This document shows positions 1-62,648 of a DNA stretch of 64,000 nt, piece after piece; positions within the stretch are counted from its first letter, which is position 1; each line of letters opens with the position of its first letter. The DNA is from Loxodes magnus. Taxonomy: Eukaryota; Ciliophora; Karyorelictea; Loxodida; Loxodidae. Below the pieces are notes generated by a model that saw nothing but the letters and a program-made list of their open reading frames with translations, was not told the DNA's origin and did not search any database. The position numbers and the translations under genes were made by a program. Where the stretch lies: contig CAMPDV010000009.1 of assembly GCA_946699065.1 (NCBI GenBank), positions 248,001 through 312,000 of the forward strand. Direction: 5' to 3'.

Positions 1-34
1 GAGCATTAAAGATTGAAGTTTTCTCATTATAATC

Positions 35-1005
35 TCAAACACTTCCAACTTCTTGAATTTTTCCAGATTCATCTGCTGTCCAGAAGCACTACCACTAACC
101 TTATTCGTTTTCCTATATATTTATATAATTACTTTATAAACTCTACAGATATTGTCTCCTGAACTAACTGCTAATTGATGGCCAGCAATACTCCAACTGC
201 ATTTTCATGCACTGACTCCTAATTAAAATGTGGTAAGAATTTTGAAATGAAGTTATTAAGTTTTTTCGTCCTTTTCAGCAATTCATATATTAACAGTACC
301 ATCTTCAGAACATGAAGCTATCTTTTCATTATCTAAGCCAATACTAGGACACCATTAGACATCTCTTATAATTTCTGCATGCTTTTGCTCAAATTGGTAT
401 ACTTCTTCTATCTTATCTTTTAGATCCCAGATTTTTATAAGGCAATCTCCACCACCTGTTACTAATCTTGCTGTTAAGCTTATATTCTCTACTTATTATA
501 ATACCTAAAGATCTGTAGCTGGAGCCCATGAAAGTCCATGAATTCCGTTTTAATGAGCTAAGACTTTTTAAACATCTCATGTGTCATCAGTTTTTCTTTT
601 AAGAATTGAAATACATCCATCAGATGATCCAACAGCTAGTCAAAGCCCAAGTTCCCAGGGGCAAAATGAAATAACATTTATAGGACCATCATGTTAGGTA
701 TATTCAAAAATATTATTCCAAACATTGGCAGACATTTCTCTCCAAACTACTACTTTCCTATCATATCCACCAGAAGCTAAAATATTACCATATTTAGGAT
801 GCCCCCATGCTAAAGTTAAAACAGCACCTGTATGTCCACCAGGTAATTTACAAACAGTTTAGGTGATTTCATTATCCTTCACTTCAGAAATATGGATAGA
901 GAAGTCTCCAGCACATGTAGCTATTCTTTTACCATAATAATCAAATTAAACATCATGTATCATACCTTCGTGCTGTGATTCAAAAGTCTTAATAGGTTTT
1001 GCCAT
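35..1005 (-). CDS. SEC13: SEC13, WD40 COPII coat / nuclear pore protein
   Basis: SEC13 forms the outer COPII cage with SEC31 and also belongs to the nuclear pore Y-complex and the SEACAT/GATOR2 complex. The six-bladed WD40 reading runs from ATG at 1005 and matches the family throughout: an N-terminal HEGMIHDVQFDYYGKRIATC stretch, then YGNILASGGYDRKVVVWRE, GSSDGCISIL and IASCSEDGTVNIW. Length is 316 aa, normal for SEC13. Four Trp positions (GLW, TWDV, NIW, SAW) are TGA, and several Gln are TAA/TAG. A 20-nt GT..AG intron at 113..132 is needed to reach the last family motif (GQWQCFW). The TGA at 35..37 is a plausible stop, but sense codons continue beyond it to the window edge, so it could be Trp and the gene could extend out of the window. 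Confidence 0.93.
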
Positions 1006-4000
1006 AAACAATTATGAATTTTATATATTTAAAAAATTTAAATTTCGCTAATTAGAATTCCCTAACTTCAGAAATCCTTAAATACTTTCTCTATTATTCC
1101 GAAAATATCTTCAGTCCTACTTTGAATACACTAGCTTTTCATATTTAAATAGGTATAGGAAATTATACCTTAGTTGACTTAAGATCTTCTATTTTAAATA
1201 TCAAGAAATAGACTAAAGGTAGTCTATCATGTGATGATAGTGTATAATATAAGCTTATCTGTACTGCTAGTTTATAAGATTTTAGTAGTTAGCTAGTTTG
1301 TATCTAATGAATATATGAGTATAGTTGACTATAAATCTAATACTTATTAATATAGTAGAAATGCTATTTTATTCAAATTTAACCAGAAATATGCTGAAGA
1401 TATCCAGAATTATCTTGTCTTATAATGAAGAGCATTTGATTATCATTTTCCCTAAACTTAAATTAATTTTCCTTCTTAACCTTCCTTTATCTAATCCATT
1501 TAATGAAATCCTTTAATTTTTCCTTATACTAATGACTAGAATTGTATATCTTAGTCTAAATATTTGAATGCTTATAGAGGTATTTTGATTTGGAACCTAC
1601 TTTAGGTTAGTTAATTACAAGACTACTTACTAGTTATAGGAGCAGAGTTACTTAATCTAGCTTTAATTAATTTTTATAAATGATATAATGAATGCTTTCT
1701 ATGTATAAGCTAGTAATACTCCTAGATGTAATTTTTAGGTTTTAAAGTAAATTATTAATCTCTTTATTTTTCAGAATAAACAAAAGCAAAAATAATTAAG
1801 TGGATAGAAGTCTGACTATGCTAGAGACTATAGTTACCTCTGAGTTACTAGAAGTTACTAAAATCGGTATCTAAAAATAGCAGCTAAGGTAGATAGCTAT
1901 CTGGTTAAGTTTGTAATACAAAGAGATAAACAATGAAGGGTATTATTTAGATAAGGTAGAGAGAATAATTATTTTGAATTGATGCACTAGAAGAATTAGA
2001 AAAATACAAACAATTAACTAATTAAATCTACTGAGACAATATAACTCAACTGATCTAAATACAGTACTAGGAAAATCTTAGTAGCAATTAACTAGAAGAT
2101 AAAGAAGTTGAATTCTAAAAGAAATAAGCATTTAGAGCATTAATTAGTTAAACATCTGACTATTTTCTAAATCTTACCCTTTTTAACTAAAGTTAATATT
2201 TTCCCAGCAATAAACTATCTATAAATCTGGTATTAGATAGATATAATAGCTGTAATATATAATAAAAGGAAGCTAGCAAAAATGGTTAAGGCGTTCTAGA
2301 TAGCATTCTTATTTCAATATATTGGTATATTTATTATACTAAGAAAGGGAGTAAGATAGGATTAATTTTTATAGGCATTACAGATAATAAAGATATCATC
2401 AAAATACTCTTGTTTATCTAGTTCAAATGAATAGATATTCGGTCTATCTTAATATAAATACAGTACTAGTTCTATAAGAACCTGCATTATAACCTTATAG
2501 TTAAGGTTATAGATTTGATTTATTATTTCATTTAGAACTTAAAGATTTAAATCTTGGTAGGTACAAAAAAGAAGCTGTAAATAGAATTAAGGTGCTAGTT
2601 ATAATAGAATGTAGATCAATTATAAGAAAGAGAATTACATTTTAGCATCCATTAAAGAGAAAGCTATACTAGCTCAGAGGAAATTGGACTGAGTTATAGG
2701 AACGCTAATTTAATATAGTTACTGTCTTAAAAAGTTGACAGTCAATCTAGAGGTAAATTTCAATTTTCAATAATAGATTTCTAAAGCATTTTAATTAATA
2801 AAAAAGCTAGAAAATTGATATTTAGCAAGGCTAGTAATATGTTTAATAAATCTAAGTATCTAGATAGTTATTAAATAGGTTCTAGATAAAATCTATGCTA
2901 TAAATCTGGTTTTTTGCTCTAAAATGTTAAAGAAAATTTGGATAATTCACTAATAATATTATAGTTATAAGTGTCAAAATTATTTTATCAATATAATAAT
3001 AATAAAGCTGGCTTCTGATCTAAGCTAATGTTTCTAAAGCCGTCTGCTTACAAATTTTGCGTCTAATATTAAAGCTTGAAAACTAGTTTAATGAAAGAAA
3101 TAAGAGTTTAAATTAATCTATTTGGAAGGTGAACTCCAAAATAATTATCTAAAGCTTTAGTTATATGTAGAACTTAAGAATATAGTTAGCGATTAAAAAA
3201 GCCATTGCGCCTTCCAATAAATTAAAACAAGCTATTGATTTAAGACTAGATAATATAAATAAATAGATATGTAAAAGGTTAAAAAATAAAGAAGTAGAAG
3301 CTTAGAGATAGACTGTTAAAATAGTTCAATATTTAAAATTTAGTAAAATGGTCTATTATTATATTCTACTTCATTAATTGCTGAACTAAGTAAGAAAAAC
3401 TTCTATATCTTCAGACAAAGAGAGAGGAAAAAGCAGAACTATCTTTTATGAAATGTACCAAAATAAGAAATAAAGATAAAACCTAGTTTTCATACTCAAC
3501 CAAGCTAATCAGGTAATGCATGGTTATCTTTATAGAAGCATTTTAAATAAATTCACCTAATCTATACATATTGCATTTCCTTCCTTAGCTAGTTTAAAAG
3601 CTAGCATCCCCAACCCTATTTTATATAATATCTCCATTTCTTCACATCTAATATAAGCAGAAATTTATCTTAGCTTTCTTTGATCTTTATTTACTTAACT
3701 ATCATTTCTGTTATACGATAGGTGTGAATACATTTTCATTTAGCTTACGAGATAAACGTCATAACTTATGTGGAATATTTTGATGGAATAATGGCAGTTA
3801 TATCAGCTAAGATTAGCATACAATCATATTATATGTGAAGAAAGAAATACATCATACCTTCTTTTAATACCATTTCAAGAGCCATAATATACTCACTTAC
3901 ACTTTTATACAAAACAATCTTTTATATCCAGTTCTCACTCAAATGAGTAAGACTGACTTTACAGTTAGAACAAATATTATCTTTAAGGAAGAATGTAAAA

Positions 4001-4207
4001 TAAAGTAAAATGATGAATAAGAGTAATAATACTAACTTCTTATATTACAATGCAAATATTAGACTAAGACGATAAAATACTTAAGGATGAGATGGTGTTA
4101 GTAACTTAATGATTTAGGCTTTTAATATAATTAGACTTTTATATTGAATTTCAAATTACATTTAAGAGTATTTTACGCTTTTAGCTTATCTTCCATATTA
4201 ATCCTTA
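1006..4207. other. Gene-free AT-rich region
   Basis: About 3.2 kb between SEC13 and the desaturase. I found no reading with family motifs on either strand under the UAR=Gln, UGA=Trp code. The sequence is rich in CTAG and TAG/CTA words. The short standard-code ORF at 1325..1516 is hydrophobic AT-rich translation with no support. Confidence 0.6.
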
Positions 4208-5611
4208 ATGTAACAAGGAGCTTAAGAAAGCTAGAAAACTGAAAAAAAATTCACTTGGGAAGAAGTGGCGAAACATAACACTACCAAGTCCTTATGGATT
4301 ATTTATGGTACCAAAGTGTATGACATTACTGACTTCCTTAATAAGCATCCCGGTGGAAGTGAAATGATTTTGATATCAGCAGGAAAAGACTGCACCAACC
4401 TTTTACCTTCCTATCATCCCTTCTCAAACGCTCCTGAAGAAATTTTAAAAAAGTATTATATAGGTGAGGTATCTAGCTTTGAACTACCATAATATACTCC
4501 TGATTCTGGATTTTATAAAGAAGTGAGAGAAAAGGTGGGGGAATATTTTAAAAAGAATAAGATTCAATATAGAAGTCCTCCTCTATTTTCAGGCCTCGCA
4601 TTGATTTTATTTGTTTTGTGGCCTTTAATGTTTTGCTCCTATTTAGGTTTCGCTACTAATTATTTAGGGGAATTTAGTTTATGAACTAGAATTTTGTTCT
4701 CTTTCATTTACGGTTGGTGCTAAGTTATGCCAACTGTGCATGTTGTACATGATTCTTCACATACTGCTTTTGGCAGAAAGCCTTATTAGTGGTTCGTTGG
4801 TCGATTTTTTTTCGACTACATTGTAGGATGTTCAATGACGGCTTGGTTACATTAGCACACTCTTGGACACCACTTGTATACAAATGTATATGAAGTTGAT
4901 CCAGATCTCCCTGCAAAAATGAAAGGAGATGTTAGAAGAACGTGCGAAAGATAGTAATGGGTATCTATTTATAAGTTTTAATGGTTGTATTTACCAATTT
5001 TGTATGGACTTTTCGGAATTAAAATGCGCTTTTAAGATATTACAGAAACATTTCTCAGAGAATCTAATGGTTATATTAGAGCTAATCCACACTCAAAGCT
5101 AATATGGTTAAGCATGATTATTTCTAAATCTTTCTTCGTGTTTTACAGAATTATAGCTCCTGTTGTCATCTTTTAAGTTTGCTCCATTTAAATTAGTTTA
5201 TTATACTTTATGGTAGCAGAACTTACTACTGCATATTGGCTTGCACTCTGCTTTTAGGTTTCCCATGTTTCAACTGAATGCGAGTCTGTGTTTGGAAAAG
5301 AAGACAAAAAGCTTGAAATATATGATGAATGGGCAGTCTCTTAAATTCTGACATCCGTTGATTATGATCACGAAAGCTGTGTTACTACATGGCTTGCAGG
5401 AGCTTTGAATTACTAAGTGGTTCATCATCTGTTCCCATCAGTAAGTCAATACTACTATCCCGAAATAGCTCCCATCGTAAAAGAAACTTGCGAGAAATAC
5501 GGAATTAAATTTAACCTTTTGGATAGTTTCTACAGTGCTCTTAAAGGACATCTAAAGCTATTGAAAATAATGGGAGAGCAAGGTCAAAAAGTTTCTATTC
5601 ATATAGGCTGA
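4208..5611 (+). CDS. Front-end fatty-acid desaturase with N-terminal cytochrome b5
   Basis: This ER membrane enzyme introduces a double bond between an existing one and the carboxyl end of an acyl chain, with electrons passed through its own cytochrome b5 domain. Residues ~20-95 carry the b5 signature YDITDFLNKHPGG. The three histidine boxes follow: HDSSH, HTLGHH and the front-end-type QVVHH, in which the Gln is a TAA codon. Hydrophobic segments lie between the boxes. The 467-aa length is typical and there is no intron. The start at 4208 is the first in-frame ATG ahead of the b5 Trp (FTWEEVAKH); the later GTG at 4265 lies inside that domain. TGA codes Trp at the SLWTR position, and the gene ends on TGA followed by non-coding AT-rich DNA. 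Delta-6 versus delta-5 specificity cannot be read from sequence. Confidence 0.95.
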
Positions 5612-6309
5612 TTAAGATATAAAACTTTACATACTCTTATTTAAATTCATAACATTTTAACTAATCCTATACAACAACATCTCAAACCCCTCTAGTCCCT
5701 ATCTATCTTATTTTCTACCTTATAAATACAAACTTATAATTTCTATAGCCATCAATCTAGCTAACATAATATAACGAAAAGATATTAAAATAAAAGGCTC
5801 ATAATAGAACTATAATTAGCAATCTAGCATGTTGGGTTATTAAATAAGAAGTTATAAACCTTAACTCTAATCAAGCAACTGTTTAATATAATTTACTATC
5901 CAGTAATTTCAACTCTATCATCTCATTTTTTGGTACTACTCCATAGTATGTAAGTATTTATCGTATCATTGGAATCTAGTATAAACTAAATTATTTTATC
6001 ATCTATATTTATACTAGCTGTCTTTGCTGCTTGTAGGTAACTTGCTCAGTTTTTTTAGATAAGTATAATAAACTATAATCTAGAGAATATTCTAGAACTA
6101 GTTTCAACAAAAATAAGCACAATACTAGCTAAGAGAACTATGAACTATATATTGGTTCTAAAGTAAGGAAGAAGGTGATAGGTAAAGGAGGAAGATAAGA
6201 AAGGCATGATATAGTATTGACAACTTATCTGTCGATGCCTTGAAAAAAAAGGTTGAAGTGACTGATTATAAATGCAAGGTGATTTAATTTAACGAATATT
6301 TAAATTTAA
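5612..6309. other. Intergenic, possible promoter of MYB gene
   Basis: No gene seen. The last bases before the MYB start contain a TTTAAATTTAA block directly abutting the ATG. Confidence 0.5.
6297..6309 (+). promoter_or_regulatory. TTTAAATTTAA block abutting the start codon
   Basis: The sequence TATTTAAATTTAA runs straight into the MYB ATG. A very similar block sits immediately before the LIN9 start at 11314, and a shorter form before RPS13. It may be a core promoter or translation-start context, but base composition alone could produce it. Confidence 0.3.
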
Positions 6310-7177
6310 ATGAAGTTAACTATAAAATTAATAATGGACATTGAGATTTAAGGTAAAGCAGATTTAGTTTCAAAGAAAAGTATCTTAGAAGAAAGCAAGT
6401 TTTCGCTTGCAAAGGAGTAGTAAGGTGAAGAAGTCAAGGAATTGTCCTTAGAAGTTTATCACCAAGTACATTAAAGAAATGTTATACCTTAAATGGATAA
6501 AAAGAATTCTTCGAATTCTTAATGAACAAGTGAAGAAGATCAATTAATCATTTATTATAAAATGAATACTTAGCTGAAGTATAAGTAAATAGCAATTATG
6601 CTTGATAGGAAAAATGCGAAGCAGGTAAGAGAGAGATGGTCTTAAAGATTAGATCCATAAATCAACAAGGAAAAATTCTCTTTTTAAGAGTAAAAGGAAA
6701 TTCTTGAAAAAAGCTTAACTTAGAAATGGGCTTCTATTGCTAGATCACTTAATAATCGAACTGATAATCAGGTAAAAAATTAGTTCAACTCCACAATTAA
6801 GAAATCTCTAAGGAAAGTCAGGCTTATGGAAAGAAACGAATCTATAGATTAAGAAGATCTAAATGAACTGGAAAAGTACATTTATGAGAACAGGAACCGC
6901 AAAGAGATTTAAAAATTGATGGAAGAAGCAATAGAATCTTACTAGCAGATTAAAACTAAAAGTAAAAAAAGATAATCACATAGAAGTCAAGAGCAAATAG
7001 TAAGCTATAACTATGTAGATCTCACCTATTAAAGAATGTGAGCTTGAATTTAGAAAAATGCAAAAGACCGAAAAAATTGAATCCGAGCCAAACAATCAAG
7101 AATTTCCTCTAATTTGCTTCAACTATAGTCAAAATATAATAGAAGGAATATATGGAGAATCTAAAATTTAAGTTTGA
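6310..7177 (+). CDS. MYB-type transcription factor (two SANT/MYB repeats)
   Basis: Nuclear DNA-binding regulator, 282 aa. The N-terminal ~65 residues are acidic and uncharacterised. Two MYB repeats follow: WTSEEDQLIIYY..KNAKQVRERW and FSFQEQKEILEK..WASIARSLNNRTDNQVKNQF. The second is the classical R3 recognition helix (RTDNxxKN). The first Trp of repeat one is encoded by TGA. One intron of 19 nt (7000..7018, GTAAGCTATAACTATGTAG) is required: without it the frame after QEQ breaks up, with it the C-terminus reads ISPIKECELEF and on to a TGA stop at 7175. The start at 6310 follows the AT-rich block; an internal ATG at about 6334 is a weaker alternative. The target genes are unknown. Confidence 0.92.
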
Positions 7178-9924: not shown

Positions 9925-10936
9925 CTATAGATTTTTAAGCTGGGCAGCAAGATCCTGAATGTTTTTTCCCTCTACTAATTTATTAATAGAAGATTCTTAT
10001 TATTGAGGCTAAGACTCTTGATCTCCTACATCTTCAACTTCAATATTCCAATCGTTTTATATCTCAACACTTTGCTCCTGTTTCACTTCATTTAAGTTGT
10101 TAGTTCTTTTCAGTTAGGGCTGTATTATACCTTACATTTTGGATGTAGTATTCTTATAATTCTTTGCACTTCTAGTTTACACAATGTGGGTTGGGTAGTA
10201 AGGGAATATTAGTAAAAAAGTCTTTGAAGGCTGAATAGCCTAGATATAACTTAGTTTCTCCAAACTTCAGAATGAATTTTAAAGTAGCTTAGACTAGAAA
10301 TCCTGCTATAATTCCCATTGTAGTTGGAAGACTTGCAGCACATACTCCAGGCCTTTGTATTTATTTTTCATTATTCTCAAGAATTGCAAGTGCAGGTGCA
10401 CATTCAAAGCAAGCAGTTTCCCCAGGGAAAATAAATTAGATATGACCTTGCAAAGCATTTTCGGAAACTCCAGATTCAATTCAGGTTAAATTCAACTCAG
10501 CACATAATCTATTAATAGTAACTCTTGCAGCATAGTTATCAACACAGCATAATAGTAGATCTGAGCTTTGCTAAATTAGCTCTTTGAATTTCTACCAATC
10601 ACTAGTAGTAATATCTTAGTTAAATGTCTCTATTTGAACATCAGGATTAATTTACTCTAGAGATTACTTAGCAGCCTCAACCTTATACATTCCACTCTAA
10701 TCAGGTCTATAGAAAAGTCGATTCATATTACTAAGTTCAACTTTATCATAGTCACAAAGCAATAACCTTCCCACTCCACATCTTGTTAGCATTTCAGCTG
10801 CAACAGAACCAACTCCTCCTAATCCAATAATTGATAATTTAACTTGCCTTATCTGCTCGTAATTCTTTACTATTCCCATAGTCTGAAGTGCCATCAGACG
10901 ACTGTAAGGGTTTTCTGGAGTAACCTTGCTATTCAT
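9925..10936 (-). CDS. UBA5: UBA5, UFM1-activating E1 enzyme
   Basis: UBA5 adenylates UFM1 and passes it to UFC1 in the ER-linked UFMylation pathway. The 331-aa reading contains the nucleotide-binding [13 protein letters not shown], the CCVDNYAAR helix, the [14 protein letters not shown] strand, and [12 protein letters not shown] with the catalytic Cys. Two CxxC-type zinc pairs follow (CFECA and HCVNQKC). The tail has the acidic W-N-I-E-V-E UFM1-interacting segment and ends DLAAQLKNL, like the UFC1-binding C-terminus of animal UBA5. A 16-nt intron at 10120..10135 joins the two frames. No TGA lies near the conserved end in any frame; the first triplet after KNL is TAG (9925..9927), which I take as the stop. 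If TAG is Gln, a 50-odd-residue non-conserved tail would be added. Confidence 0.94.
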
Positions 10937-10986
10937 AGATATTAATATTTGACAAAAATTATAATTTAAACTTAAAAAATAACTAT

Positions 10987-11028
10987 CACCATTAGCACCA
11001 TTAACACCATTAGCACCATTAGCATCAT
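10987..11028. repeat. 9-bp tandem repeat (CACCATTAG-like)
   Basis: About four and a half imperfect copies of CACCATTAG/CACCATTAA in the intergenic region between two divergent genes. The copies are clean and the GC is higher than in the surroundings. Confidence 0.8.
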
Positions 11029-11292
11029 GTAGTCATACATTCACATAAACTAAATCAGCATAACCATTTACATTTCATACTATTCCATCTATCTAAAGTG
11101 CATTTCATCATTACTACAACCAAAGCAAGTTTATATTAATAGCAGAGTTATAAAATAAAAAAGGTGGTAATAAATGATTATAAAGTAAGGAGCTAGAATG
11201 ATGATTTCTGATTAGCGAGTTAGAAAAAGATTTGAAAAAAGAAGATGAAAGGATGGAATTAAACAAGAGTGTTAGCATAATTATATTCATTA

Positions 11293-11313
11293 TTTTTAAA
11301 TTTTTAAATTTAA
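11293..11313 (+). promoter_or_regulatory. TTTTTAAATTTAA block abutting LIN9 start
   Basis: Doubled TTTTTAAA/TTTAAA block ending exactly at the ATG, like the one before the MYB gene. Confidence 0.3.
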
Positions 11314-13257: not shown

Positions 13258-13965
13258 GATCAGACTAATTTTGCTAATTAAGTTGTGTGAACCTTTTTTC
13301 TTTTCATATCAAAAATCATTTTTCTCACACTTTTATCATACACTCAAAAATCTTCCTTAAGTTTCTCTGATCTATCTTATTCTAATGATGAAACAAACGG
13401 CATAAATTACTAAACAATAAGCAAAAATCTAAAGACTATTACTATAAACACACCATGTTTCTAGCATAATTATTAATTTCCTTCTTGAGAATTAATTCAC
13501 TTATATTCAAACTTTTAATTCCCTTTATTGAGTATTTTTACTAAGCTACTATATTTTCTATTAATAGGTTTAAAATACTTGATATATTTATTATTCAAAT
13601 GAATCAAAAAATAAAGTAATCAGGTGTTACTTACTCTCTTCAGATTAAATAGAGAAGCATATCATAGTCCCTAGCCTAGCTTCTTTTTAAATATGTGGAG
13701 TAATTTTGTTCTAGACATCAAAATATAAAGAATAAGAAAGTGAAGTAAAATAAGGAGGTAAAGCAATTGTAAAAGGGAAGTATTAAATCAGCTAATTTAT
13801 AGCTTAAAGATATAAATTAATGATTTAGCTAACTTCTATTACTAAAAATCTCTCTACTGCATACTATCTATTATCAGCTTTATTATAAAGTAATTGTATA
13901 ATTTTAGTTATATTAAGTATTAGGTATGCTTTATAGGGTATTTAGTAAGTGCTAATTATTAATAA
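13258..13965. other. Intergenic
   Basis: 700 bp of AT-rich sequence between LIN9 and the transporter. No feature seen. Confidence 0.5.
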
Positions 13966-15558
13966 ATGTAAGGAAATAAAAGTGATTTATAGCAGACGTT
14001 GGCTGAAGATTTACCCTAGTATATCGAAGAAGAAGAAAAGTAAAATGTCTTAGTCAACTCGTTAGATAAACTGTTCAATAAAAGAAAGTTCGGCAAGTTC
14101 CAATATTTTCTCTGTTTTGCTATAGCGATGATGGCATTCTGTGACGGAGCTGAGCTTGTAGTTATATCTTTTGCAGCAGAAATTTTGGAAGATGAATGGG
14201 ATTTGACTTCAGCAGAGAGAGGAATGCTGGGTACATTCCTTTATATTGGGTATTTTACAGGAAGTTCTATATCTGGAAAAATAGCTGATAATTATGGAAG
14301 AAAACCTCCACTAATAATTGGAAATATTGGTGTCATTGCTTTTGGCTTATCAGCAGCGGCAATGCCAGAAGTTTGAAGTTTTAGTTTGACAAGAATGTTG
14401 GTAGGTATTTCTATTGGTCTTTTAATGGGAACAAGTAGCACATACCTTGCTGAATTATTTCCAAGCAAATTTAGAGGGAAACTTTTTATTTTCTGGCCAA
14501 TGACTTTTGTAATAGGCGAAACTTATATAGTTCTCATGGCCTTTTGAATCGTACCTGATTTAGATCCTACATATTGGAGATGGCTTATAGTTTCTGCAGC
14601 TGCTCCAATGATTATTCCTCTTATTCTTGTTCTATTTGTACCAGAAACAATTTATTTCTTGGCTAATAAGAAAAGATATGTAGAAGCAATTGAAGTATTT
14701 GACAAAATAAATAGGTTAAATAACGATACTCTGCTTACAGAGGAAGAAAAATAAGTCATCTACAATATTAAACCTCTTGAGAAGCCTAGTCTTAAGGATA
14801 TTTTTAGTCCTGAGCATGTTCGAACTACAATGATTATGACTCTTAGTTGGTTTACGGTTGGTTATGTTTTTTATGGGATTCTTTATATTTTACCTTAAAC
14901 AGTGAGCGATGATTACGGTAACGATGATATTATTCAAGATTATTTAATGTCAGTAATTTTTGAGATTCCTGGAATTTTAATAATGACCTTTATGATAGAT
15001 GTGCCATATTTAGGAAGGAAAAACTCCCTAAAAATTTTCTTTTTATTACAAAATATTTTCCTATTCGTGTGTATGTTTGACCTAGATGAGTCACTTTTTG
15101 TATTTATGATATCTATAGCTAAGTCATGATGTAACAATGCTTTCAATCTATGCTATTTGTATTCAACTGAATACTATCCTACTATGTTGAGAACTACAGG
15201 TCTAGGATTCACAAGTGCAGCAGGAAGAGTAGGTGGAATCTCTAGTCCCTTCTTAAGTGTATTATTTTCAGACATTGATTAACAAATGCCATATTAGGTA
15301 TATTTTGGTATTGGAACATTCTGTTTAATAGGCTGCATGTTTTTATAAATAGAAACCTTCGGTCGAGCATTGGATACACGAACTCCTTCGATTTCAAGAA
15401 GTAGTTCATTTGCAAAAAAGAAGGATTCAGTCATTAATAACACTAATCTTTAATCTAGAAATTTAAGTATAAGCTCTTATTCTCCTATTTAATCTTACGA
15501 TTATATCCAACATTACAAAGCTAAGGAAACTTATCTCTATCATATTTGCTTCCTATAA
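13966..15558 (+). CDS. MFS transporter, sugar/SV2-OCT type
   Basis: Twelve-helix secondary transporter of the major facilitator superfamily. After a ~45-residue acidic N-terminus, TM1 reads FCDGAELVVISFAAEIL and is followed by the loop-2 signature GKIADNYGRKPP. Further on are RMLVGISIGLLMG, YLAELFPSKFRGK, PETIYFLANKKR before the central loop, and the C-terminal-half motif YYPTMLRTTGLGFTSAAGR. These patterns suit organic-ion/SV2-like members. TGA encodes Trp at PEVWSF and MAFWIV. The start ATG at 13966 is the first one in a frame open to TM1. The end is uncertain: no TGA follows the Ser-rich tail in this frame before about 15930. I placed it at the TAA at 15556, but earlier TAR triplets, or splicing into the downstream ORF, are possible. 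The substrate is unknown. Confidence 0.85.
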
Positions 15559-17129: not shown

Positions 17130-17741
17130 TCAACAGCATTTCTTTTTATTAACCTTATTCTTTGGCTAGTCCCTTAGATTCATTTTTTATGACTATCGCT
17201 GAGTTTTTGGATTTTTAAGCGTTGTTTTATTAGACTCAAATAGCTAATTGGCTATAGATTGAAATATTTATTATATATTGATATTTTCTAAGGCTGATAC
17301 TTCAATAAAGCTAACTTCTAAATTCTTTGACATTTCTTCCGCACTTAGTTTATCCACTTATCTCCTATTAACCAAATCACTTTTATTCCCTACAATTATT
17401 TTGGAAACTTAACTAAACTCTGCTTGCTATTTAAACTAATCAATTCAGTATTTAAGTCGATCGAATGTAGTTTTGTCAGTTATATCGTAAACAAAGATGA
17501 TAGCATCAGCTTCTTTAAAGAACTTGGTAGTTATAGACTAAAATCTTTCTTATCCAGCTGTATCGTAGATTCTCAATTTAATGCTAGTTCCCTATACTTC
17601 TATAGTTTTTATCTTAAGATCAACTCCAATAGTGCTCATATAACTCTCTTTAAATCTGTTTTCAGTAAATCTCAATAATATTGAAGTCTTACCTACTCCT
17701 GAATCTCCTAATAGTAGAACTTTGCATACTATCTCCTCCAT
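17130..17741 (-). CDS. Rab-family small GTPase
   Basis: Membrane-trafficking GTPase of 203 aa, no intron. The G motifs are complete: GDSGVGKTS (P-loop), the switch-I Thr in [17 protein letters not shown] (switch II, with a TAA-encoded Gln), NKSD and ISAL-type VSAL. The C-terminus is basic and ends KKKCC followed directly by TGA, the double-Cys geranylgeranylation signal. This end shows that TGA is a true stop, while an internal TGA encodes Trp in LKYWIDQF. The sequence is close to the Rab1/8/35-like group, but I do not assign a subfamily. Confidence 0.95.
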
Positions 17742-40882: not shown

Positions 40883-41338
40883 ATGGGTCGTATGCACACT
40901 CCAGGAAAAGGTATTAGCAAATCTGCTTTGCCTTACCGTCGTAAAGCCCCAACATGGTTGACAGTAACTCCAACTCAAGTAACTGACCATATTGTTAAGC
41001 TCGCCAAAAAAGGATTATATCCAAGTTAAATTGGTGTCACACTTAGAGATACAATGGGAGTGCCTCAGGTTTCCTCTTTAACAAGTAACAAAATCTTACG
41101 TGTTTTGAAGGCGTAAGGATTAGCTCCTGAAATTCCTGAAGACCTATATCATTTGATTAAAAAGGCAGTAAATGTCAGAAAACATTTAGAGAGAAACAGA
41201 AAAGATAAAGATAGCAAATATAGGCTAATTATGATTGAATCCAGAATTCATAGATTGGCAAGATACTATAAAAGAACCAAGAAATTACCTGCTAACTGGA
41301 AGTATGTGAGTTCAACTGCTAACGCTCTAGTATCTTGA
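40883..41338 (+). CDS. RPS13: 40S ribosomal protein S13 (uS15)
   Basis: 151 aa, colinear with human RPS13 from [10 protein letters not shown] through the [18 protein letters not shown] core to the ALVS end. It is a small-subunit protein near the central domain of 18S rRNA. Two in-frame TAA codons occur: one at the universally conserved Gln of PSQIGV, the other at a variable position (LKAQGLAP). Both Trp are TGG, and the gene ends on TGA exactly where the family ends. No intron. This is the cleanest proof in the window that TAA is Gln and TGA is a working stop, and that a highly expressed gene avoids TGA as Trp. Confidence 0.99.
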
Positions 41339-50040: not shown

Positions 50041-50895
50041 TTAAATAACATCAAGCCACTTGCCCATCTTGATATCATACATAAATAAATTGTTATCGCA
50101 GTCAAACATGTATACGTTATCAGACTTTGAAACAGGATTGAACCACATGCTTTTCTTAGAGCTTCCTTCAAACTTTTGTCCATGTTTCATAACTTATTTT
50201 TCATCAAAGATAGCAGTTGAATTAAACTTATCGATATTATCGAATAATACAATGATCTAGTCGTTCAAATTGCTTGCATATACATTATGCATTGCACAAG
50301 GCAAGCTTACCTTAGATCTTATTCATGTTCCTAATGAACTATCAAAATGCTGTATAGAATCAAACATTATACTTTCTACTTATCCTCCAAATATATATAA
50401 GTCTGTTTTAAGGTAACTTGAAGCATGTAACTAAACTCCATGAGTTAATTCTGGAAGATCAGAAAAAGTCATCGTCTTACTATTAAAAACTTCAACATTA
50501 GAAATTGTTTTTCGAAGCTTATAATCTCATCCACCAGTAATGATAAGGTTATTATGCGCATCTAGAACCATTCTATGCCAAGCTCTATTAAGCTTCATCT
50601 TAAGCTCTTTAACATCGTTAAGAACATAATCTATAAAAGAGAATCTATTTTAATAGCTGTTTTTCCCTCCACTTGCAATGATTATATGATCATTAATACC
50701 CTAAATAAATGTATAATCCTGATCTATGGGAATAGTGTCCACATGATGACAAGTGAATGAATTGTTTTTAAACTTGTACTAGTAAACTTAATTACTGTTA
50801 TGCTAAATTGTTATATAGACATCTTCACGTTGAGTCATCATCGAAGTATCGTTAAAAGAATAGTTATCTTACTAATGACTTTAGCAGCACCCCAT
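50041..50895 (-). CDS. Kelch-repeat protein with N-terminal MGCC acylation motif
   Basis: 284 aa. The N-terminus MGCCQS fits N-myristoylation at Gly2 plus palmitoylation at Cys3/4, so the protein is probably membrane anchored. The rest has kelch-like beta blades, each with a Gly-Gly pair and a Trp/Tyr partner: IIIASGGKN, NNLIITGGWDY and DLYIFGGQVE, with spacing near 50 residues and a last blade FMYDIKMGKWLDV. TGA encodes Trp in GGW and GTW. After the last blade there is no TGA for 63 codons of hydrophobic, random-looking sequence; I ended the CDS at TAA 50041..50043, with the in-frame TGA at 49852 as the alternative. The binding partner is unknown. Confidence 0.8.
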
Positions 50896-51180
50896 TATTT
50901 CAACTAGAAAATAAAAAGAGCAAAAATAATTTCATATAATGAATATTCAACAACTACTTGCCTAGATTTCTTTAATCTAATTAAAATATCTCATTACTTT
51001 ATTGCTATGCTTAGTCAGTCTGCTTTATACTTATAAAGGAGTATATTTTACTACTTATTTCAATACTAGTTAGTTGGAGTTTATATGATAGATTAAATCT
51101 AAGTGTTGGTATCTGAAAGAAAATTTCTGAACTTTACTTTAAGTTAAATATAAAAATCATTATACGCAATTAATTAGCCT

Positions 51181-52035
51181 TCAAGTTGACACATTAGGAC
51201 CAGAGACTTCTATTTTATAGTTTATTTGCTCTTCCTCAAATTCCCCTATTTCTCACTTTTCTAGCTAAGGCATGAAGCAGGCTGACTTTCCTACATAAAT
51301 TAATGCCAATATTAGAGCTAGGGAACTAAAGCTGCATATACTAATCAAAGAAATAAGCAAAATGTTGTTTTTTTGCTTCTGATGAAGGTATGATTCTACC
51401 ATAATGTAAATTACTATTTATAAAAGGCCAAGAGTCATAAGTAAAATAGGCATTAGTATACATGACTTATTACATTCACGTCATGCTACATATGGTTTGA
51501 ATTTGCTAGTAATCTTCAATTACATTTTGTAATTATAATGACAAAGCTCACACTAAATGCTCTTTAAATCTTCCTTCAGTTTTTTAAGGTTTTTTTCGTT
51601 TTGTCAATTTTAATTTTTTGAAAGGATTCAGTTTTTTAAGCAAGTATCATGTATATATTTCACACTTCCTGAGCATTTACAAGGTGAAATCAAAGAGCCT
51701 AATTAGATATCAATATTTTCTGTATTTCTCCTTTCAAAGCAAATTCTGCACATATTTCCAAAACTTGACTAATTACTGATTCTATCAATGAAAGGTTTCC
51801 TCTCAGGATCTATCAATTTACCCTCTGTATTCGTTTCCTCAACCTTCTCTTCAGACTACAAGTTAACAGAGTTATCAGGAACATAACTTATTCTAGAACT
51901 AGTGTTATCATCGTGAGATTTATTCTATGGCTGAAGAGTTAAATTATTATAGTCTTACGATTATTCAACACTCAGTGGAACAATTTTCCTAGAATTTGAT
52001 AGCTTTACCTTTTTAACTGGTATTTCATTTTCCAT
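51181..52035 (-). CDS. MARCH-type (RING-CH) membrane E3 ubiquitin ligase
   Basis: 284 aa. An N-terminal ~90-residue disordered region precedes a RING-CH/RINGv domain with the C4HC3 ligand order: MCRICFE, SPCKCSG, IHDTCLKNW and CELCHYNYK. Two transmembrane helices follow (CILMPILLMTLGLLQIVIYI and ILLISLISICSFSSLALILA) with a short acidic tail. This is the usual MARCH layout; these enzymes ubiquitinate membrane proteins during endosomal sorting. TGA encodes the zinc-adjacent Trp in KNW and others, and the gene stops on TGA after NVST. No intron. Confidence 0.93.
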
Positions 52036-53052
52036 TTAGAAATTTTCTATCAAGCAACTCTTTTCAATAATTATATTAAACTTTTAAGCAATACCAAGCA
52101 AAACGCTATCAAGCAAGATATGGATCTAATTGAAGGTTAAAGCATTAATATTTAACAAGAGTAATGTATTATATATCCATTCAAAGGATGACAGTAATAG
52201 ATTAATACTAAAATTGAATAATATTATTAATAACTAAAGGTAGCCATTATTTGTTCTTTAGATTTTAAAATATGCTTGTAAGACTTTAATTATCTAAATG
52301 TCTTAATCAGCTAATATGTAAAACTCCTTAATATTCTTACCAATAAAGCTCTTTCTGTTTTGATTATAAACATATCTATAATATTAGCAACTCTCTTTAT
52401 ATTCTATCCGGTAAATTTGTTTTTATTATAGAGTCAAAAAAAGCAACTATTGAGGGAAGGAAATTACTACCTCTCTTTAATCATATCATATCAATGTATT
52501 ATAATGAAATATAAACATTTTCTGTAAGCATTGATTTAACTTTAGCTCTATAAATATATTTTAAGCTATAAAATATTATACTTTCATTCTTTATTCTGTT
52601 ACTAAACTAACAGGATGATATATTTATTCTATAATATGCTATATCAATTGACATTCATTAATTACCCTTAGAAATGGTATTCATCTTTCAATTTATATTA
52701 TCACTGTATTTATAATCTAGCTCATTGATTTGAAGAAGCTAGAGGAATAATTTATGGGATAATTATTTAATGATAAAACCTTATTAGTTCAGTGTCATAG
52801 ATACTGAGGATATTATATATTATCACCAATTCCTTTTAAAAGATTAATTATACCTTTAAAGAAGCATTTATTTACTATTTTCTTTGCTAGTCATGTAATT
52901 ATTCGCTAAATATCTGTAAGATACTGCTTTTTTATTTTTTTCATTATTCTATATTATCTAAAAAACGTTATTTCAAATCCTAAATATCTGCACCTGAAGC
53001 TAATTAATTCATAAAGGTAGTTAGTTTTAATTAATTTTATAAATTTAGTTAT
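52036..53052. other. Intergenic
   Basis: 1 kb between tandem minus-strand genes; nothing recognised. Confidence 0.5.
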
Positions 53053-56586: not shown

Positions 56587-59254
56587 TAAATTAAAGAATT
56601 ATGTTTATCAATTGTCGCCAAATAAACTTGTGTTTGTCTTTGTTTTAGGTCGTTTTCCTTCATTTTTAGCAAAGTTTCTTACTCCTTCAGCTTGTTTATC
56701 TTCTTCTTGCTTTTCTATTTTTTCTTGAGTTATTTATTCAAACTAGTTTTTACTATCCTATTTTTGTACAACTTATTTTTAAATTAGTGGCTAATTTTGT
56801 TGTTGCTATTAAACAGGAGGCTGCACTTTTTGCACTTCAACTGCTTACATTTCAGGAATTTTAGAATCGACTTAAATTTTTTCTTTGGCTTTAACTTGTG
56901 GCTAGATCTATTAATCAGGCTATTCTTCTTTTAAAATAGCTTTCTTAATTTTTTCCTCTTTTAGCTTTTATTATTATCTCTGCATAAATACCTACCTTCA
57001 TTTCTTCATGCTTCTCCATTTACTCTATTAGTTACTCTTATTATGGTGCAAGACTGTATTAATAACTTACTCAGGCTCTCTTCTAATGATTTTTTGAGCT
57101 TCTTTCAAAGTCTTTTAAGTTTTCTAAAGTGCATCTCTTTCTCTCGTAACGTTTTCTGGCTCTCCCATCATAGAAATGAGTTCTTTAGAGTTTATTTATT
57201 TATAAAGCTCAAATTAGATGCTTTCTATAACTGCTCTAACCAAGAAGGTACCAATCATTTTAGGAATGGTGTCTCTAACATTTCTAACGACTAACTTATA
57301 ATAAGATTCTATTCTTTCCCTGATTTCTTCTGCAAATACTGAACCTCCAGATTTACCTTCTCCTTTTCCTTTCTATAATAACAAAAAGTTACAGGTACAA
57401 TATCTGTTCTTCTTTCCAAGTAGGAAGAATCATTAGTAAATAAATAGTTTTCTTCAGAGTCAATAATTGATAGACAAATCCTTAAGCAATTCTCTTTCTC
57501 CTTATTGAAGACTGAAGAAACTACAAAACTAACTTCTGGAGCCATTGTAGGAAATCTATAGAAAATCCTTTCCGATATTTTTTAGGCAAGATTTTCCATA
57601 AATAAATGAACTTCTTGCACACATTCCTCTACAGGCTCTCTTAATTGTTCTAGTTTTGGTTGAATTAAGAAAGAAAAAACATCGACTGAGGGAAAGCCAG
57701 GAATACTGTCTCCTTGGTGATATTGAATTGCGTCTTAAATATCTTACTCAGTGTAATCTAAAGTTGCTTTAAACGTGGAAGTAGAAAATTTATTTAAAAG
57801 ATTGAAAAACATCTGTTTTATATAAGAACCTCCTTTGAGTCCTTTGGTGATATGAGAAGAAGTTCTCCTTTTATCAAATCTTCCTCTAATGAGATTTTTA
57901 AAGATTTCACAGAAATCTGTGATCATAGCAAAAAGCATTTAGATTTTCTCATGATCCTATGAAGGAAGTGGTGTGCCTAGCTCTTTTAATCTTTCATTAC
58001 AGTATTTCTATTTTAGTATAACTTCATGCATAATTTCTGGTAATATGTTTTTGATGTGGCTGTATAATATTTTTGTTAGTCTTTAGCTTAGAACATCAGT
58101 GCCAAGATATCCATTAGGCATCATTGAGTAAACTGGATGCTTGGCGAAGAAATTTTTTTCTTCCTTTAAAGCTTCTTTGACTTTAACATTATTCTTAATA
58201 TCTTACTATGATCTTAGCTTTACACCTACATATCCTAGTGCTAAAGGAATTTCCTCATTTTGTAGGATGTTTTTTGCACTTGTACCTTTATCCATAATAT
58301 CTATCTTCGTTAGAACTCCTAGAGTTCTCTAGCCTGACTTATCAACATTTCTTGCAAGTTAAAGTCCTTCAGAAGTTGATAAATCTTAGTTTGCTGCTAT
58401 TACGCACAGAATTATAGTTCTGGGGTCTTGGATGTATTTTAAGCACATGTTTCTAGTAATTTCCTCTATGTTTTCAGGTTGATCAGATCCCTTTATAGGA
58501 ATACGTGTGATTCCTGGTAGATCAATAAGGGTTAAATCAGGGCAAGATGGACTATAAATATGCAAGATAATAGGATTATCTACTATTCCCTTATTTTTTC
58601 CAGCAACATCTTCAGTCAGTTTCTCAATTGTTCGCTTTACTTCCTGAAAATCGGTAAACTTTGATTAGGGTAAGTCTTCAAATTTAGCCCAAGGTTAAGC
58701 ACTCTTATCCTGCAAATGAATAAGACGAAGTTCTAAAGGTCTTCTAGTACAAACTCCTTCACCTCTAGGTAGAAAATCAAGACCAACTATCGATTCCATG
58801 ACAGAAGATTTACCACTAGATTAAGTTCCTAGTGTAGCTATTCTAGGTAGAGTAATATATTTTTAAAGTCCACAATCTCTTAAATCATCTACTAAAGATA
58901 TTAAAGAGCGAAGATTATCAAATAAAGTTCCTTGATCTTCTTCCATTTAAAGTACTTTATTAAATGTAGAAGCTTTATATTCCTATTTGTTAAATTAAAG
59001 CATATGTTTCTGTCACCCTAGAGAATCTATTACTTATAAATTGCTTTTAAAATCAGCTGATCTACTAGCTCGTAAATCTTCCGGTGAAAATTAAATATTA
59101 TTTAAATATTTAACTTAAAAGCTTCTTTCATCTTCTTTTTTAAGTACTTTTGACATATAAAAAGCAAATGAACTATTGATATTTAAGATTTCTTGACTGC
59201 TTCAACAGGTAACTAATTTAATTTAACTTCCTTAAATCTTTTAATATTTGACAT
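56587..59254 (-). CDS. Dynamin-family GTPase
   Basis: About 865 aa from five exons; introns at 59197..59213 (17 nt), 57373..57392 (20 nt), 57054..57070 (17 nt) and 56980..56995 (16 nt). After an ~95-residue N-terminal extension comes the GTPase domain: P-loop GTQSSGKSS, GVCTRRP with the switch Thr, LIDLPGI and TKID. The middle domain/stalk follows, and the GED includes [20 protein letters not shown] and [14 protein letters not shown]. There is no PH domain; the tail is a long Q/K/E-rich coil. It severs or remodels membranes (endocytosis or organelle division). An internal ATG at 58946 is a weaker start because the upstream frame reads well. No TGA ends the tail; TAG at 56587 is my best stop, and a TGA at 56609 in another frame is an alternative if one more intron exists. 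Confidence 0.88.
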
Positions 59255-59389
59255 TATTCAATCTTGTTGTTCACTACATATAAGAATTTATAATCATCTT
59301 ATTATATCTTGATATATAGTAAAAATGGATCTAAGTATGTAGTAAAAGGTCTTAATTAAACATATTTGCTGAAAGATAAAATTAAAATG

Positions 59390-61209
59390 TCATTTTCTGC
59401 TCGATAGTTTGAAAGTAGAAGTAGTCTTAAGTTTCTTTTCATATTCCTGCATAGAAATTTACTTTTTGCTATTTTTTAGTTTCAGACATGTACCTCTAAA
59501 TATTATAATCTCCAAATAAAGCCAGTAGCACTGTTCTCTCATCTACTTAATATTTAATACCATAGTTTTAAATGGTAAATTCCTAGTTTATCCTTTTCAT
59601 TTCCAGTTCCTTCAGCTCTGTTATATTTTTCTTAATTTCTGCTAGTTTGTTATTTATTCACTTTAACTCTTGTGAGTATTTAGTATCCTATTAACTATTT
59701 TGAGTCTCTTTAAAATCAACTCTAGATTCGAAAATTAGCTCATTTTGTTAAGGCTCAAATACCACATAAGCTTGCTTTGTATAAAAATCAATTTTGACAG
59801 TAGGAATCATGATTTTAGAAGTTTTGCATTACTAGCCTATTTTTCTTCATAACTTAGCTAGATTTTACTACTATTTATCTTTTTCAGTAGTAGATACACT
59901 CTAAGAAATCTCTTCCTTAATTTCTTATTACCTTTTCAATAAATGATCTATCTGTAAATTACTTTAAGCAATCTAAATTATTACTTACTTTTATCAAAAA
60001 TTGTTTACCTTCGTCATCTAAAAATGAAGGAAAGCTACTCATCTAAATAGATTCATTAAGTTTTAATATTTATTTTATAATTCAACTAATTCCTTCCTTT
60101 CTAACATCATTTCCTTCTTTAAGTATAGCCTATAAATGAATCACCTACTCAGCTGTAACGAAGCCTATTTAGCTTTTTATGTTTTCAATTTAATCTTCAT
60201 AATTCTTTACAACTCCCTTATTTTTACCTCTCAACTCTGTAAAATGATTTTTATCTTAAGTTATTTTTAGTAAATCTTTATTTATTTTGATTCAAGTACT
60301 AAATAAGTCTATTTAATCTTTATCCTCTAAAAAGTTCATTATCTGATCATTTGATAAGTTATTGAAGGAAAATAATTTGTTGCTTGCTTAGATTTTTCTA
60401 ATTTTAATGTCCACTTCTTTTCAGCATGGCTATGTACAGAATTCCATTAAAGCTTATTCCAATTTTTTTTTGCTATTATCTATTTCGTTTATGTAGTTTT
60501 ATAAAGAGGAATTTTAACCTCTGCAGAAATTTAGTTTTTCTTTCATTACTTTAAGTTTTTCCTATAGCTCTAGTTTTCTATCATAGAGGCTACTTTGAAT
60601 ATAATTATTTGAATTTTCCTTGTTTTAAGGTTTTGTTATCTAATCTGTAAAAACATCTTTATGTCTTAGCTATTCTTATTTGGCCGCTTTGAGTTGGTAA
60701 TTTTTCAAATACATCTAAAATTTATACTTTTCTAATCTATTCTCGTTTAAATAGCTTTCATCCAATAATTACTTAGCAGTTCATTTATTTAAGTCTTCTA
60801 CTTATTTTACATCATCTTCTTCCTAGTTCTTAATGAGAGGTTTAATCTTAGTGGTTACTTTCTTTACATATGAATTTGATTTTTTATGCTTTGCAACTAA
60901 GGATTTTTAGATCCTATGCATAGACTCTGAAGTGTTTGCTCTTTTTAAATCCTGACTTTATTTCTATTACTTCCTTTATTAAGTAGAGTAATTAATCAAA
61001 CTTCTATCCGTAGTTTGAGTTTAAAAGCTTTCAGTTAAGAAATAATCAGCTTAACTCTAGTCTAGATTTTATCCTTATCTATAAGTTCTAATTTCCTTCT
61101 ACTTATTGATTTAGTACTATCTATTATATGGTAGCAGCTTTAGATTCTTAATATTTTCATATATGTTTACTTATCTATTCATATTGGCATATACTGGTGT
61201 TGTCTGCAT
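59390..61209 (-). CDS. Coiled-coil protein of unknown function
   Basis: 595 aa from three exons; introns at 59973..59988 and 59447..59462 (16 nt each). The N-terminal ~170 residues are Q/S/K rich and disordered. From ~180 on it is mainly coiled coil (DRKLELQEKLKVMKEKLNF and QEIKEEISQSVSTTEKDK), with a possible small folded part around KIMIPTVKIDFYTKQAYVVF. The start ATG at 61209 opens the longest frame. With the last intron removed, the protein ends KLSSRK and TGA; without it a different TGA would end it ten codons earlier. It may be a centriolar or ciliary coiled coil, but nothing proves that. Confidence 0.77.
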
Positions 61210-61620
61210 TTTTTTAACTTATTTATCAACTATTTCAAATAATAGCAGGACTATTATAAACCTAGTTTCCCTATCCCTGCTAATAAGTAAGTGACTCTTG
61301 TAAGTGATTAAAATGAAATATAGAAACCTTAGTTTAAAATTTACTTTATCTAATCTATTTTTCTGTCTTAAACTACCTAATTTTGAATAAGTTAAGCATG
61401 CATATATAGTATATGTATATATAACGTGCCATTAGTTATTAAGTATTTTGTGTTTATTAGTCTATTCTAGCATTTTGGATATGTTATAAAGCAGGATATT
61501 AAGACTATTAGCTCAACTTAAGATTCAATATATTGACTTTCATTTAAGAGCTCTTTATTTAATTATCTTATAACAGTTAATTAGATATGATTTAGGAATT
61601 TAATTTAGCTGAATATTTTA
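61210..61620. other. Spacer with a short AT dinucleotide run
   Basis: 411 bp. It contains TATATAGTATATGTATATAT near 61403..61422; otherwise empty. Confidence 0.5.
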
Positions 61621-62648
61621 TCAATATATAAAGCATCCTTCTTTTGTGCAAGACTCAGCACTACAAATCTTTGTCCTAACTTTGTTTTTCTGTTTTATAC
61701 TCGGCAGTTTAACTTCATCTTCCTCACTTATACTAAATTTGGCTTCTATTTTCATTTCTTTATAGTTGTCTCCTAGTTCAATATTCTTGGGACTACCGTT
61801 TTATGTTCATTAAATCAGATTAGTTCTGTCAATTTCATTTTGGAGCACTTTATCATAAAAATCTTTCTGAAGGTTCATTAAATTTTATAGGTTTTGCTTA
61901 TCTTCATTAGATTTAGCGAAAGCGAGTATTTTTTCTTCTATATCTTAGTAAGCTTATTAAGTTTATTAAGGACCTTCTACAAAGTTTTTGAATGCTGATA
62001 TATCTGAAATTTAAGTATCACATAATGAAAAAGAAAATTCGCTTTCAGCGATTGTTTTTTATCTATTCTGGAAATTGAGTGGAATAGGACTAGTGAAATA
62101 AGCAAATTTATCTGACAGTCCACTGAAGAAATTAAATTAGGAGATTAAAAACTAACGTTAGAACTTACCTTAGTGACTATAGGATAAATGATACTTAGCT
62201 TTTCTTATTTGCATGCTTCAATTCTTTCTTTAGCAATTTATTAATTTATGATTATCATTTCAATCTTAAATTAAGACTACTGCTCCTTGTCATTAGTTTG
62301 ATCGCTTTAACTTTATTCATTTGACTGTTGAATCTATTTGAATCATGATCTAGTTTATTCGAAGTGCTAGAACCATTCATCTAATTAGCTTATCGTTTTT
62401 TAGATTTCAATTGACTGAATGAGGAATCTTACATTAAGATTGCACTAGTTCTCTGCACTAGTTGAAACCTGGATTATATCTCCAATTATTCCTTTATTCT
62501 AGTCTTTTTCAAATAGCTTAAAAAGTTCATTTGCTAAGTTCTAAAACTGCTTACAAAAGCCTGAATTATAAAATTACTTTCGATCTGATTCTTATACTCC
62601 TTCATAAAAAGGATAACCTAGCGAAGGTGTCTTTCTGTTTTAAGGCAT
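61621..62648 (-). CDS. Protein of unknown function, helical, Q-rich
   Basis: 336 aa from two exons with a 17-nt intron at 62152..62168 (GTAAGTTCTAACGTTAG). The N-terminus (KTPSLGYPFYEG) is followed by amphipathic helices (KQFQNLANELFKLFEKD, QSIEIQKTISQLDEWFQHF), a Ser/Phe-rich middle (FFSGLSDKFAYFTSPIPL), further helices, and a Cys-containing end CSAESCTKEGCFIY before TGA. The coiled-coil-like first half suggests protein binding. No family recognised. Confidence 0.72.

What the first reader, a model, noticed from the sequence alone, without database searches (positions are those of the whole stretch)
35..62648. All three standard stop triplets are also sense codons
Seen directly: TAA/TAG at conserved Gln (RPS13 PSQIGV, desaturase QVVHH, Rab AGQERF) and TGA at conserved Trp (DHHC CPW, SEC13 blades, MYB first Trp, Kelch GGW). 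TGA also terminates RPS13 and the Rab (after CC). Established knowledge: UAR=Gln with ambiguous UGA is described in karyorelicts and Condylostoma. The taxon is inferred.
Basis: partly seen in the sequence, partly recalled or inferred. Interest (0 to 1): 0.85.

Follow-up and report, generated by a model that had tools for sequence, protein, structure and literature searches.

The report
Loxodes code: UGA means several things
This is genomic DNA of a karyorelict ciliate, almost certainly Loxodes magnus, whose published genetic code reads UAA and UAG as glutamine and UGA as either tryptophan or stop; its genome also holds tRNA genes that fit this and a gene in which UGA appears to mean tryptophan, selenocysteine and stop within one message.

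Summary
The host genome is 705.73 Mb, the Loxodes magnus MAC assembly 706 Mbp with NCBI table 27, and its eRF1 motifs equal those printed for Loxodes striatus. With stop triplets masked, 5 of 6 in-frame TGAs in PDB-aligned spans of five window genes face Trp. TGA=W scored best in 9 of 9 Pfam models, TAR=Q in 1 of 1. TGA also ends RPS13 and the Rab where homologues end. In 16 domain spans TGA is 22 of 57 TGA+TGG, TAR 124 of 175 TAR+CAR. The genome has tRNA-Gln-like UUA/CUA genes (252 pattern matches, control 1), no tRNA-Trp(UCA) by pattern, and 115 tRNA-Trp(CCA) genes with unpaired 27:43 (4-bp anticodon stem) in two arrays, beside 2 with 5 bp. It also has tRNA-Sec(UCA), SepSecS, and a thioredoxin reductase whose ORF carries UGA at two conserved Trp, the Sec site and the stop. 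Short-stem tRNA in Loxodes and UGA "triality" in related ciliates are in print. Verdict: already known.

The parts
1..1002 (-). SEC13 (WD40) gene piece; in-frame TGA at 205-207, 283-285, 577-579 (opposite Trp) and 640-642 (variable column); TAA at 946-948 opposite Gln
4700..5620 (+). fatty acid desaturase; TAA at 5414-5416 in QVVHH
6334..7170 (+). MYB protein; TGA at 6523-6525 = first Trp
9952..11086 (-). UBA5 (ThiF) gene; TGA 10481-10483 opposite Trp; four TAA/TAG codons opposite Gln of the top PDB homologue (10 aligned)
13945..15003 (+). MFS transporter piece with 2 in-frame TGA in the domain span
17130..17744 (-). Rab GTPase; TAA 17550-17552 (AGQERF), TGA 17445-17447 opposite Trp, TGA 17130-17132 = stop after CC
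19000..19800 (-). DHHC palmitoyltransferase; TGA 19348-19350 in CPW; TGA=W is the best of 10 readings tried
29568..30569 (-). MYND/MSS51 protein with 4 in-frame TGA in the domain span
35166..36740 (-). START-domain protein with 2 in-frame TGA in the domain; W reading scores 16 bits above X
40883..41338 (+). RPS13 (uS15); TAA 41027-41029 in PSQIGV, TAA 41114-41116, TGA 41336-41338 = stop at the conserved C-terminus
50047..50901 (-). Kelch protein; TGA 50527-50529 in GGW
51568..52107 (-). RING-variant protein with in-frame TGA in the domain
56611..59924 (-). dynamin (GTPase, middle and GED parts); TAA/TAG throughout, no TGA in the Pfam spans counted

Best explanation
The window is macronuclear DNA of a karyorelict ciliate, almost certainly Loxodes magnus, and uses the published ambiguous code (NCBI table 27). 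UAA and UAG are read as Gln, most likely by cognate tRNA-Gln(UUA) and tRNA-Gln(CUA). [quoted passage not shown] Near the 3' end of the message UGA is read by eRF1 as stop (by proximity to the poly(A) end, the model of Swart et al. 2016). In thioredoxin reductase a third reading, Sec, is set by a SECIS-like hairpin and tRNA-Sec(UCA), so one ORF carries all three meanings. Shown from sequence: codon positions, tRNA gene sequences, the Sec-site UGA and the hairpin. Inferred: which tRNA decodes which codon in the cell, and the poly(A)-proximity rule.
For: X-masked alignments: 5 of 6 TGAs opposite Trp; RPS13 and Rab end at TGA. Pfam: TGA=W best in 9 of 9 models from 6 gene pieces, TAR=Q best of ten readings in 1 of 1. 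UUA/CUA tRNAs: 252 pattern matches, control 1; 7 of 7 fetched regions give UUA or CUA tRNAs by ARAGORN; over the matched stretch they resemble UUG/CUG genes of the same genome. tRNA-Trp(CCA) with 27:43 mismatch: 48 A.C + 67 U.C copies; 5-bp stems in 2. No tRNA-Trp(UCA): 24 pattern hits against a control of 59; 19 of 24 fetched, none a tRNA by ARAGORN, the other 5 have the same matched strings as fetched ones. tRNA-Sec(UCA) three genes, SepSecS, TrxR with TGC-TGA-GGT-TGA in 5 of 5 loci above the family cut-off.
Against: No RNA, ribosome or protein data were available; meanings rest on conservation. One of six aligned TGAs faces a non-Trp column. Only 11 of 50 TAR codons face Gln in single homologues (most are in variable columns). 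Pattern searches can miss tRNAs with introns or unusual loops; about 11 of the 139 tRNA-Trp pattern matches were never seen. Two 5-bp tRNA-Trp genes exist, so UGG and UGA need not share one tRNA. Rfam's SECIS model did not hit the hairpins even at E 10, and the consensus fold of the four is weak (-3.09 kcal/mol). A TrxR-like locus below the cut-off whose end I fetched (C46, L116) shows no GCUG end.
Confidence: 0.95

Rival explanations
1. Condylostoma-type code (table 28): UAA and UAG are also regular stops.
Against: Gene ends that homology fixes all use TGA: RPS13 and Rab, RPS18 3 of 3 loci (its expected end is recalled), eRF1 2 of 2 paralogues, TrxR 5 of 5 loci above cut-off. That is 5 families, a small sample.
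Confidence: 0.03
2. The internal TGAs and TARs are sequencing errors or pseudogenes.
For: Assembly only; I saw no reads.
Against: TGA sits at Trp in 5 of 6 aligned cases and TAR at Gln more than at any other residue; the masked frames stay aligned; fitting tRNA genes exist in many copies; the same kinds of codon occur in eRF1, SepSecS and TrxR of the same genome (eRF1 has TAR only inside).
Confidence: 0.01
3. UGA is read as Trp by an imported mitochondrial or edited tRNA-Trp(UCA), not by the short-stem tRNA-Trp(CCA).
For: Ciliate mitochondria encode tRNA-Trp(UCA) (Swart 2016); nothing here excludes import.
Against: 115 short-stem genes of the U.C or A.C type; short-stem tRNA-Trp is reported for Loxodes, and a U.C mismatch at this pair (numbered 26/42 there) for Condylostoma and Amoebophrya, with reporter tests in other species (passages of PMC12005148 and PMC13092985).
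Confidence: 0.08

Closest known systems
NCBI table 27, karyorelict nuclear code (Swart 2016 PMC4967479; Seah 2022, recalled and not held; Seah 2024 PMC11441545)
   Different: No difference in the code. Here UGA is 22 of 3,094 codons (0.71%) in conserved spans; Swart 2016 give 0.120% for Parduczia and 0.042% for C. magnum overall. Different kinds of sample, so only a rough comparison.
[quoted passage not shown]
   Same: Top pair of the anticodon stem unpaired; reported for Loxodes (Swart 2023, not held, known to me only through).
   Different: Tandem arrays of 48 and 67 copies and two mismatch types (A.C, U.C), plus two 5-bp genes; I have seen no text on this, but the paper that reports it is not held.
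UGA codon 'triality' in Condylostoma and Parduczia, with TrxR (Swart 2016, figure legends)
   Same: UGA as Trp, Sec and stop; Sec codon just before the SECIS.
   Different: Here all three readings are placed in one ORF of Loxodes, with 5 loci and a second UGA three codons after the stop. Whether the Condylostoma or Parduczia TrxR also has internal Trp-UGA I could not see (legend only).
Loxodes striatus eRF1 (table in PMC4695839)
   Same: RAQNIKS, FLCENTF and Ala70, identical to both paralogues here; the review calls such eRF1 UGA-only.
   Different: None seen in these motifs.
Euplotes UGA = Cys and Sec in one gene (recalled, no call)
   Same: One codon, two residues set by position relative to SECIS.
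   Different: Here Trp instead of Cys, and UGA is also the stop.

Membership tests
NCBI table 27 (karyorelict code) | UAA and UAG encode Gln | tested here: met
NCBI table 27 (karyorelict code) | UGA encodes Trp inside genes | tested here: met
NCBI table 27 (karyorelict code) | UGA is the stop codon | tested here: met
   RPS13, Rab, RPS18 x3, eRF1 x2, TrxR x5
NCBI table 27 (karyorelict code) | in-frame UGA depleted just before true stops, short 3' UTR | not tested
   too few fixed gene ends; reported by Seah 2024
Loxodes | eRF1 motifs RAQNIKS / FLCENTF / Ala70 (L. striatus) | tested here: met
   identical in L035 and L036 to the table in PMC4695839
Loxodes magnus | MAC assembly of 706 Mbp | tested here: met
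   705,730,643 bases
Loxodes magnus | 18S rRNA or protein phylogeny | not tested
   no tree was built
[quoted passage not shown]
   115 copies; cmscan marks the pair as non-standard in the C67 type
[quoted passage not shown]
   needs reporter or ribosome data
Selenoprotein TrxR | penultimate UGA in GCUG | tested here: met
   TGCTGAGGTTGA in 5 of 5 loci above cut-off; not seen in the one lower-scoring locus fetched (L116)
Selenoprotein TrxR | SECIS in the 3' UTR | tested here: inconclusive
   SECIS-like hairpin in 4 distinct sequences; weak consensus fold; Rfam SECIS not hit
Selenoprotein TrxR | tRNA-Sec and SepSecS in the genome | tested here: met
   EFSec, SBP2 and SPS not searched
Condylostoma code (table 28) | UAA and UAG also used as stops | tested here: not met
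   no fixed gene end uses TAR (12 loci of 5 families; small sample)

The most novel reading that the evidence does not exclude
In the Loxodes thioredoxin reductase message one codon, UGA, is read in three ways in order along a single ORF: Trp (codons 81 and 91), Sec (488, in reach of the hairpin) and stop (490), with a kept second UGA exactly three codons later. If so, decoding depends only on place relative to the 3' end and the SECIS, and this one mRNA can test all the rules at once; the genome also splits tRNA-Trp into a massively amplified short-stem class and a rare 5-bp class, perhaps one for UGA and one for UGG.
Probability: 0.7. Interest if true: 0.6.

Novelty: already known. Interest (0 to 1): 0.35.

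Why it matters
The code itself is in print. What this genome adds is a clean test bed: frequent sense use of its only stop codon, a tRNA set that could make it work (no UCA Trp tRNA found, amplified short-stem CCA tRNA), and a gene that needs Trp, Sec and stop readings of UGA within one message. How a ribosome tells the three apart could be studied on that one mRNA.

Tried and rejected
L034 was first taken as eRF1 (best Pfam hit); I read its translation as Pelota (by eye), and L035/L036 are eRF1 (L035 by PDB search). The UBA5 scan was off frame and gave nothing; redone. RF00005 over the genome returned only 63 scored hits; ARAGORN on 26 of the 30 loci cut gave tRNA-Lys in each, and tRNA-Ala in some, so patterns were used instead. 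A repeated element with a tRNA-like 3' half and a CTTCAGA loop (L097-L102) was considered as tRNA-Trp(UCA) and rejected (no tRNA by ARAGORN). The Rfam SECIS search failed. A second selenoprotein family (GPx, PF00255) was asked for three times and never answered. Coding segments of the window were guessed by a simple codon-usage model and used only to choose pieces for Pfam. No tree was built and no stop-context statistics were made.
Full report
Where it comes from. The window is G000:C9:248001-312000 of a genome of 705,730,643 bases in 7,843 contigs. Seah et al. 2024 (PMC11441545; I saw the outline with abstract, section 9 and passages) give 706 Mbp for the Loxodes magnus MAC assembly and state that Loxodes uses NCBI table 27, UGA being the only stop and also Trp. 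The eRF1 of this genome carries RAQNIKS, FLCENTF and Ala at position 70, the same as a table in PMC4695839 prints for Loxodes striatus (passages). The genus is thus well supported and L. magnus almost certain; no tree was built.

Check of the observation. To avoid begging the question I masked all three triplets as X and compared five gene pieces with PDB sequences (codon positions). Six TGAs fall in aligned spans: SEC13 four, Rab one, UBA5 one. Five face Trp in all five alignments printed for that gene; the SEC13 one at 640-642 faces L, V, V, S and I. By hand count against one homologue per gene (first listed for four, second listed for dynamin), 50 TAA/TAG codons are aligned and 11 face Gln, the commonest residue; K, N and R have five each, S four (tally). 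Pfam scores for TGA as W, X, C, R: MSS51_C 69.2/62.4/62.6/62.3, MYND 40.6/34.5/31.8/36.0, START 59.0/42.8/43.5/42.7, RINGv 48.5/41.7/38.2/42.2, Myb_6 53.4/47.2/47.3/47.7, Myb 40.5/35/35/35, Sugar_tr 106.4/104.0/101.7/104.2, MFS_1 88.7/83.4/82.2/82.4 (five gene pieces, Sugar_tr and MFS_1 being two models of one). DHHC: W 121.4 against 116.4 for the next of ten readings. ThiF with TAR as Q 192.0, next E and K 188.8, of ten readings. In 16 Pfam- or PDB-supported spans, 3,094 codons: TGA 22, TGG 35, TAA 84, TAG 40, CAA 36, CAG 15; introns inside the spans were not removed.

Where genes end. RPS13 aligns to residue 150 of five 151-residue chains, has one more residue and then TGA. The Rab has TGA after CC. 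RPS18 ends at TGA in 3 of 3 loci (name and expected end recalled), eRF1 in 2 of 2 paralogues, TrxR in 5 of 5 loci above the family cut-off. None of these 12 loci ends in TAA or TAG. So table 27 fits and table 28 does not, on a small sample. I could not test the reported rarity of UGA before true stops.

tRNAs for UAA and UAG. A pattern for Gln-like tRNAs with UUA or CUA anticodons matched 252 times, control 1. Seven regions were fetched and each gives UUA or CUA tRNAs by ARAGORN, which names them by anticodon only; L104, L105, L107 and L110 were also given to cmscan and score 59 to 69 bits. The UUG/CUG pattern gave 215 matches, control 0. Over the 31 bases matched, the commonest UUA and UUG forms differ at two places, one of them the anticodon; CUA and CUG forms differ at about four. 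This makes the suppressors tRNA-Gln by descent, an inference.

tRNA for UGA. The pattern for tRNA-Trp(CCA) matched 139 times (control 22; 100 places listed). Two tandem arrays hold 48 copies (C67, period about 187) with A27.C43 and 67 copies (C148, period 241) with U27.C43, so the anticodon stem has four pairs in 115 of 115; one C67 copy has a shortened D arm. Only 12 of the 139 lack C43, control 11. Two of these, on C110, are tRNA-Trp with five pairs, each with an irregular T arm; three of the other ten were scanned and are no tRNA, seven were judged from the matched string alone. About 11 C43 matches outside the arrays were not listed and not seen. tRNA-Trp(UCA): 24 matches, control 59; 19 of the 24 were fetched and none is a tRNA, the other five repeat the strings of fetched ones. 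The short-stem tRNA in Loxodes is in print (Swart 2023, not held; cited in PMC12005148 and PMC13092985, passages seen). Descriptions of the arrays and the two stem classes I have not met in the listings of searches, which did not ask for arrays as such.

eRF1. L035 aligns along nearly the whole of solved eRF1 chains (532 bits); L036 was compared by eye with L035. Against the solved chains (taken as human numbering, from recall) both differ at E55A, T58R, S60Q, S70A and Y125F. The review PMC4695839 says that in Loxodes the two altered motifs act together to give UGA-only reading, which fits UAR as pure sense. Ser70 is Gly in Blastocrithidia (PMC12153298, passages). Swart 2016 warn that single eRF1 changes do not track codes.

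A third meaning. The genome has three tRNA-Sec(UCA) genes at 63 to 74 bits and SepSecS at 357 bits, itself with one in-frame TGA. The TrxR/TGR family gives 10 matches, 5 above cut-off. The one read in full (L111) has TGA at codons 81 and 91, both opposite Trp of solved TrxR2 (query translated with W), at 488 in GC-U-G, and at 490 as stop. All five 3' ends above cut-off read TGC-TGA-GGT-TGA; the end of one of the five weaker loci was fetched (L116) and shows no such end, the other four were not looked at. Four distinct sequences, 58 to 65 of 82 residues alike pairwise, carry directly downstream a hairpin with a GUGA/GA internal loop and an A-rich tip, like a SECIS; fold z-scores -3.1, -3.2, -4.7, -1.9. 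Against it: Rfam's SECIS model misses them even at E 10, and the joint fold of the four is weak, with several pairs broken in L111. Swart 2016 (sections 7 and 12 read, legends in passages) already call UGA a 'triality' in Condylostoma and Parduczia and align their TrxR. In searches I found no paper on Loxodes selenoproteins; PMC4695839 holds both words but speaks of Loxodes only for UAR and eRF1, and Seah 2024 has no 'selenocysteine' in its main text.

Verdict. The finding is correct and already known for this organism. The best new handle is that one message appears to need three readings of UGA.

Noticed in passing
L079-L083 (G000 C67:482k-491k, C148:155k-173k): tRNA-Trp(CCA) genes stand in two long tandem arrays of 48 and 67 near-identical copies with different spacer periods (about 187 and 241 bases) and different 27:43 mismatches.
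   Followed up: partly
L111-L115 3' ends; L035 and L036 3' ends: A second in-frame TGA exactly three codons after the stop is kept in 5 of 5 TrxR loci (4 distinct) and 2 of 2 eRF1 paralogues while the codons between vary; RPS13, Rab and RPS18 lack it. Tandem stops are reported to be favoured in ciliates with UAR=Gln (PMC6879139, passages).
   Followed up: partly
L097-L102 (C444, C558, C561, C594, C921, C1144): A repeated element with a conserved tRNA-like 3' half (CTTCAGA...GGTGGGTTCGAGTCCC) and no cloverleaf by ARAGORN, perhaps a tRNA-derived short repeat.
   Followed up: no
L077, L078 (C110): The only two 5-bp-stem tRNA-Trp(CCA) genes found have an inserted base or mismatches in the T stem; they may be a UGG reader or decaying copies.
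   Followed up: no
G000 C103, C64, C78, C158, C130, C214, C154, C341: Many tRNA genes (Lys, Ala, Gln, suppressor Gln, Thr among those seen) lie in clusters and tandem repeats on a few contigs.
   Followed up: no
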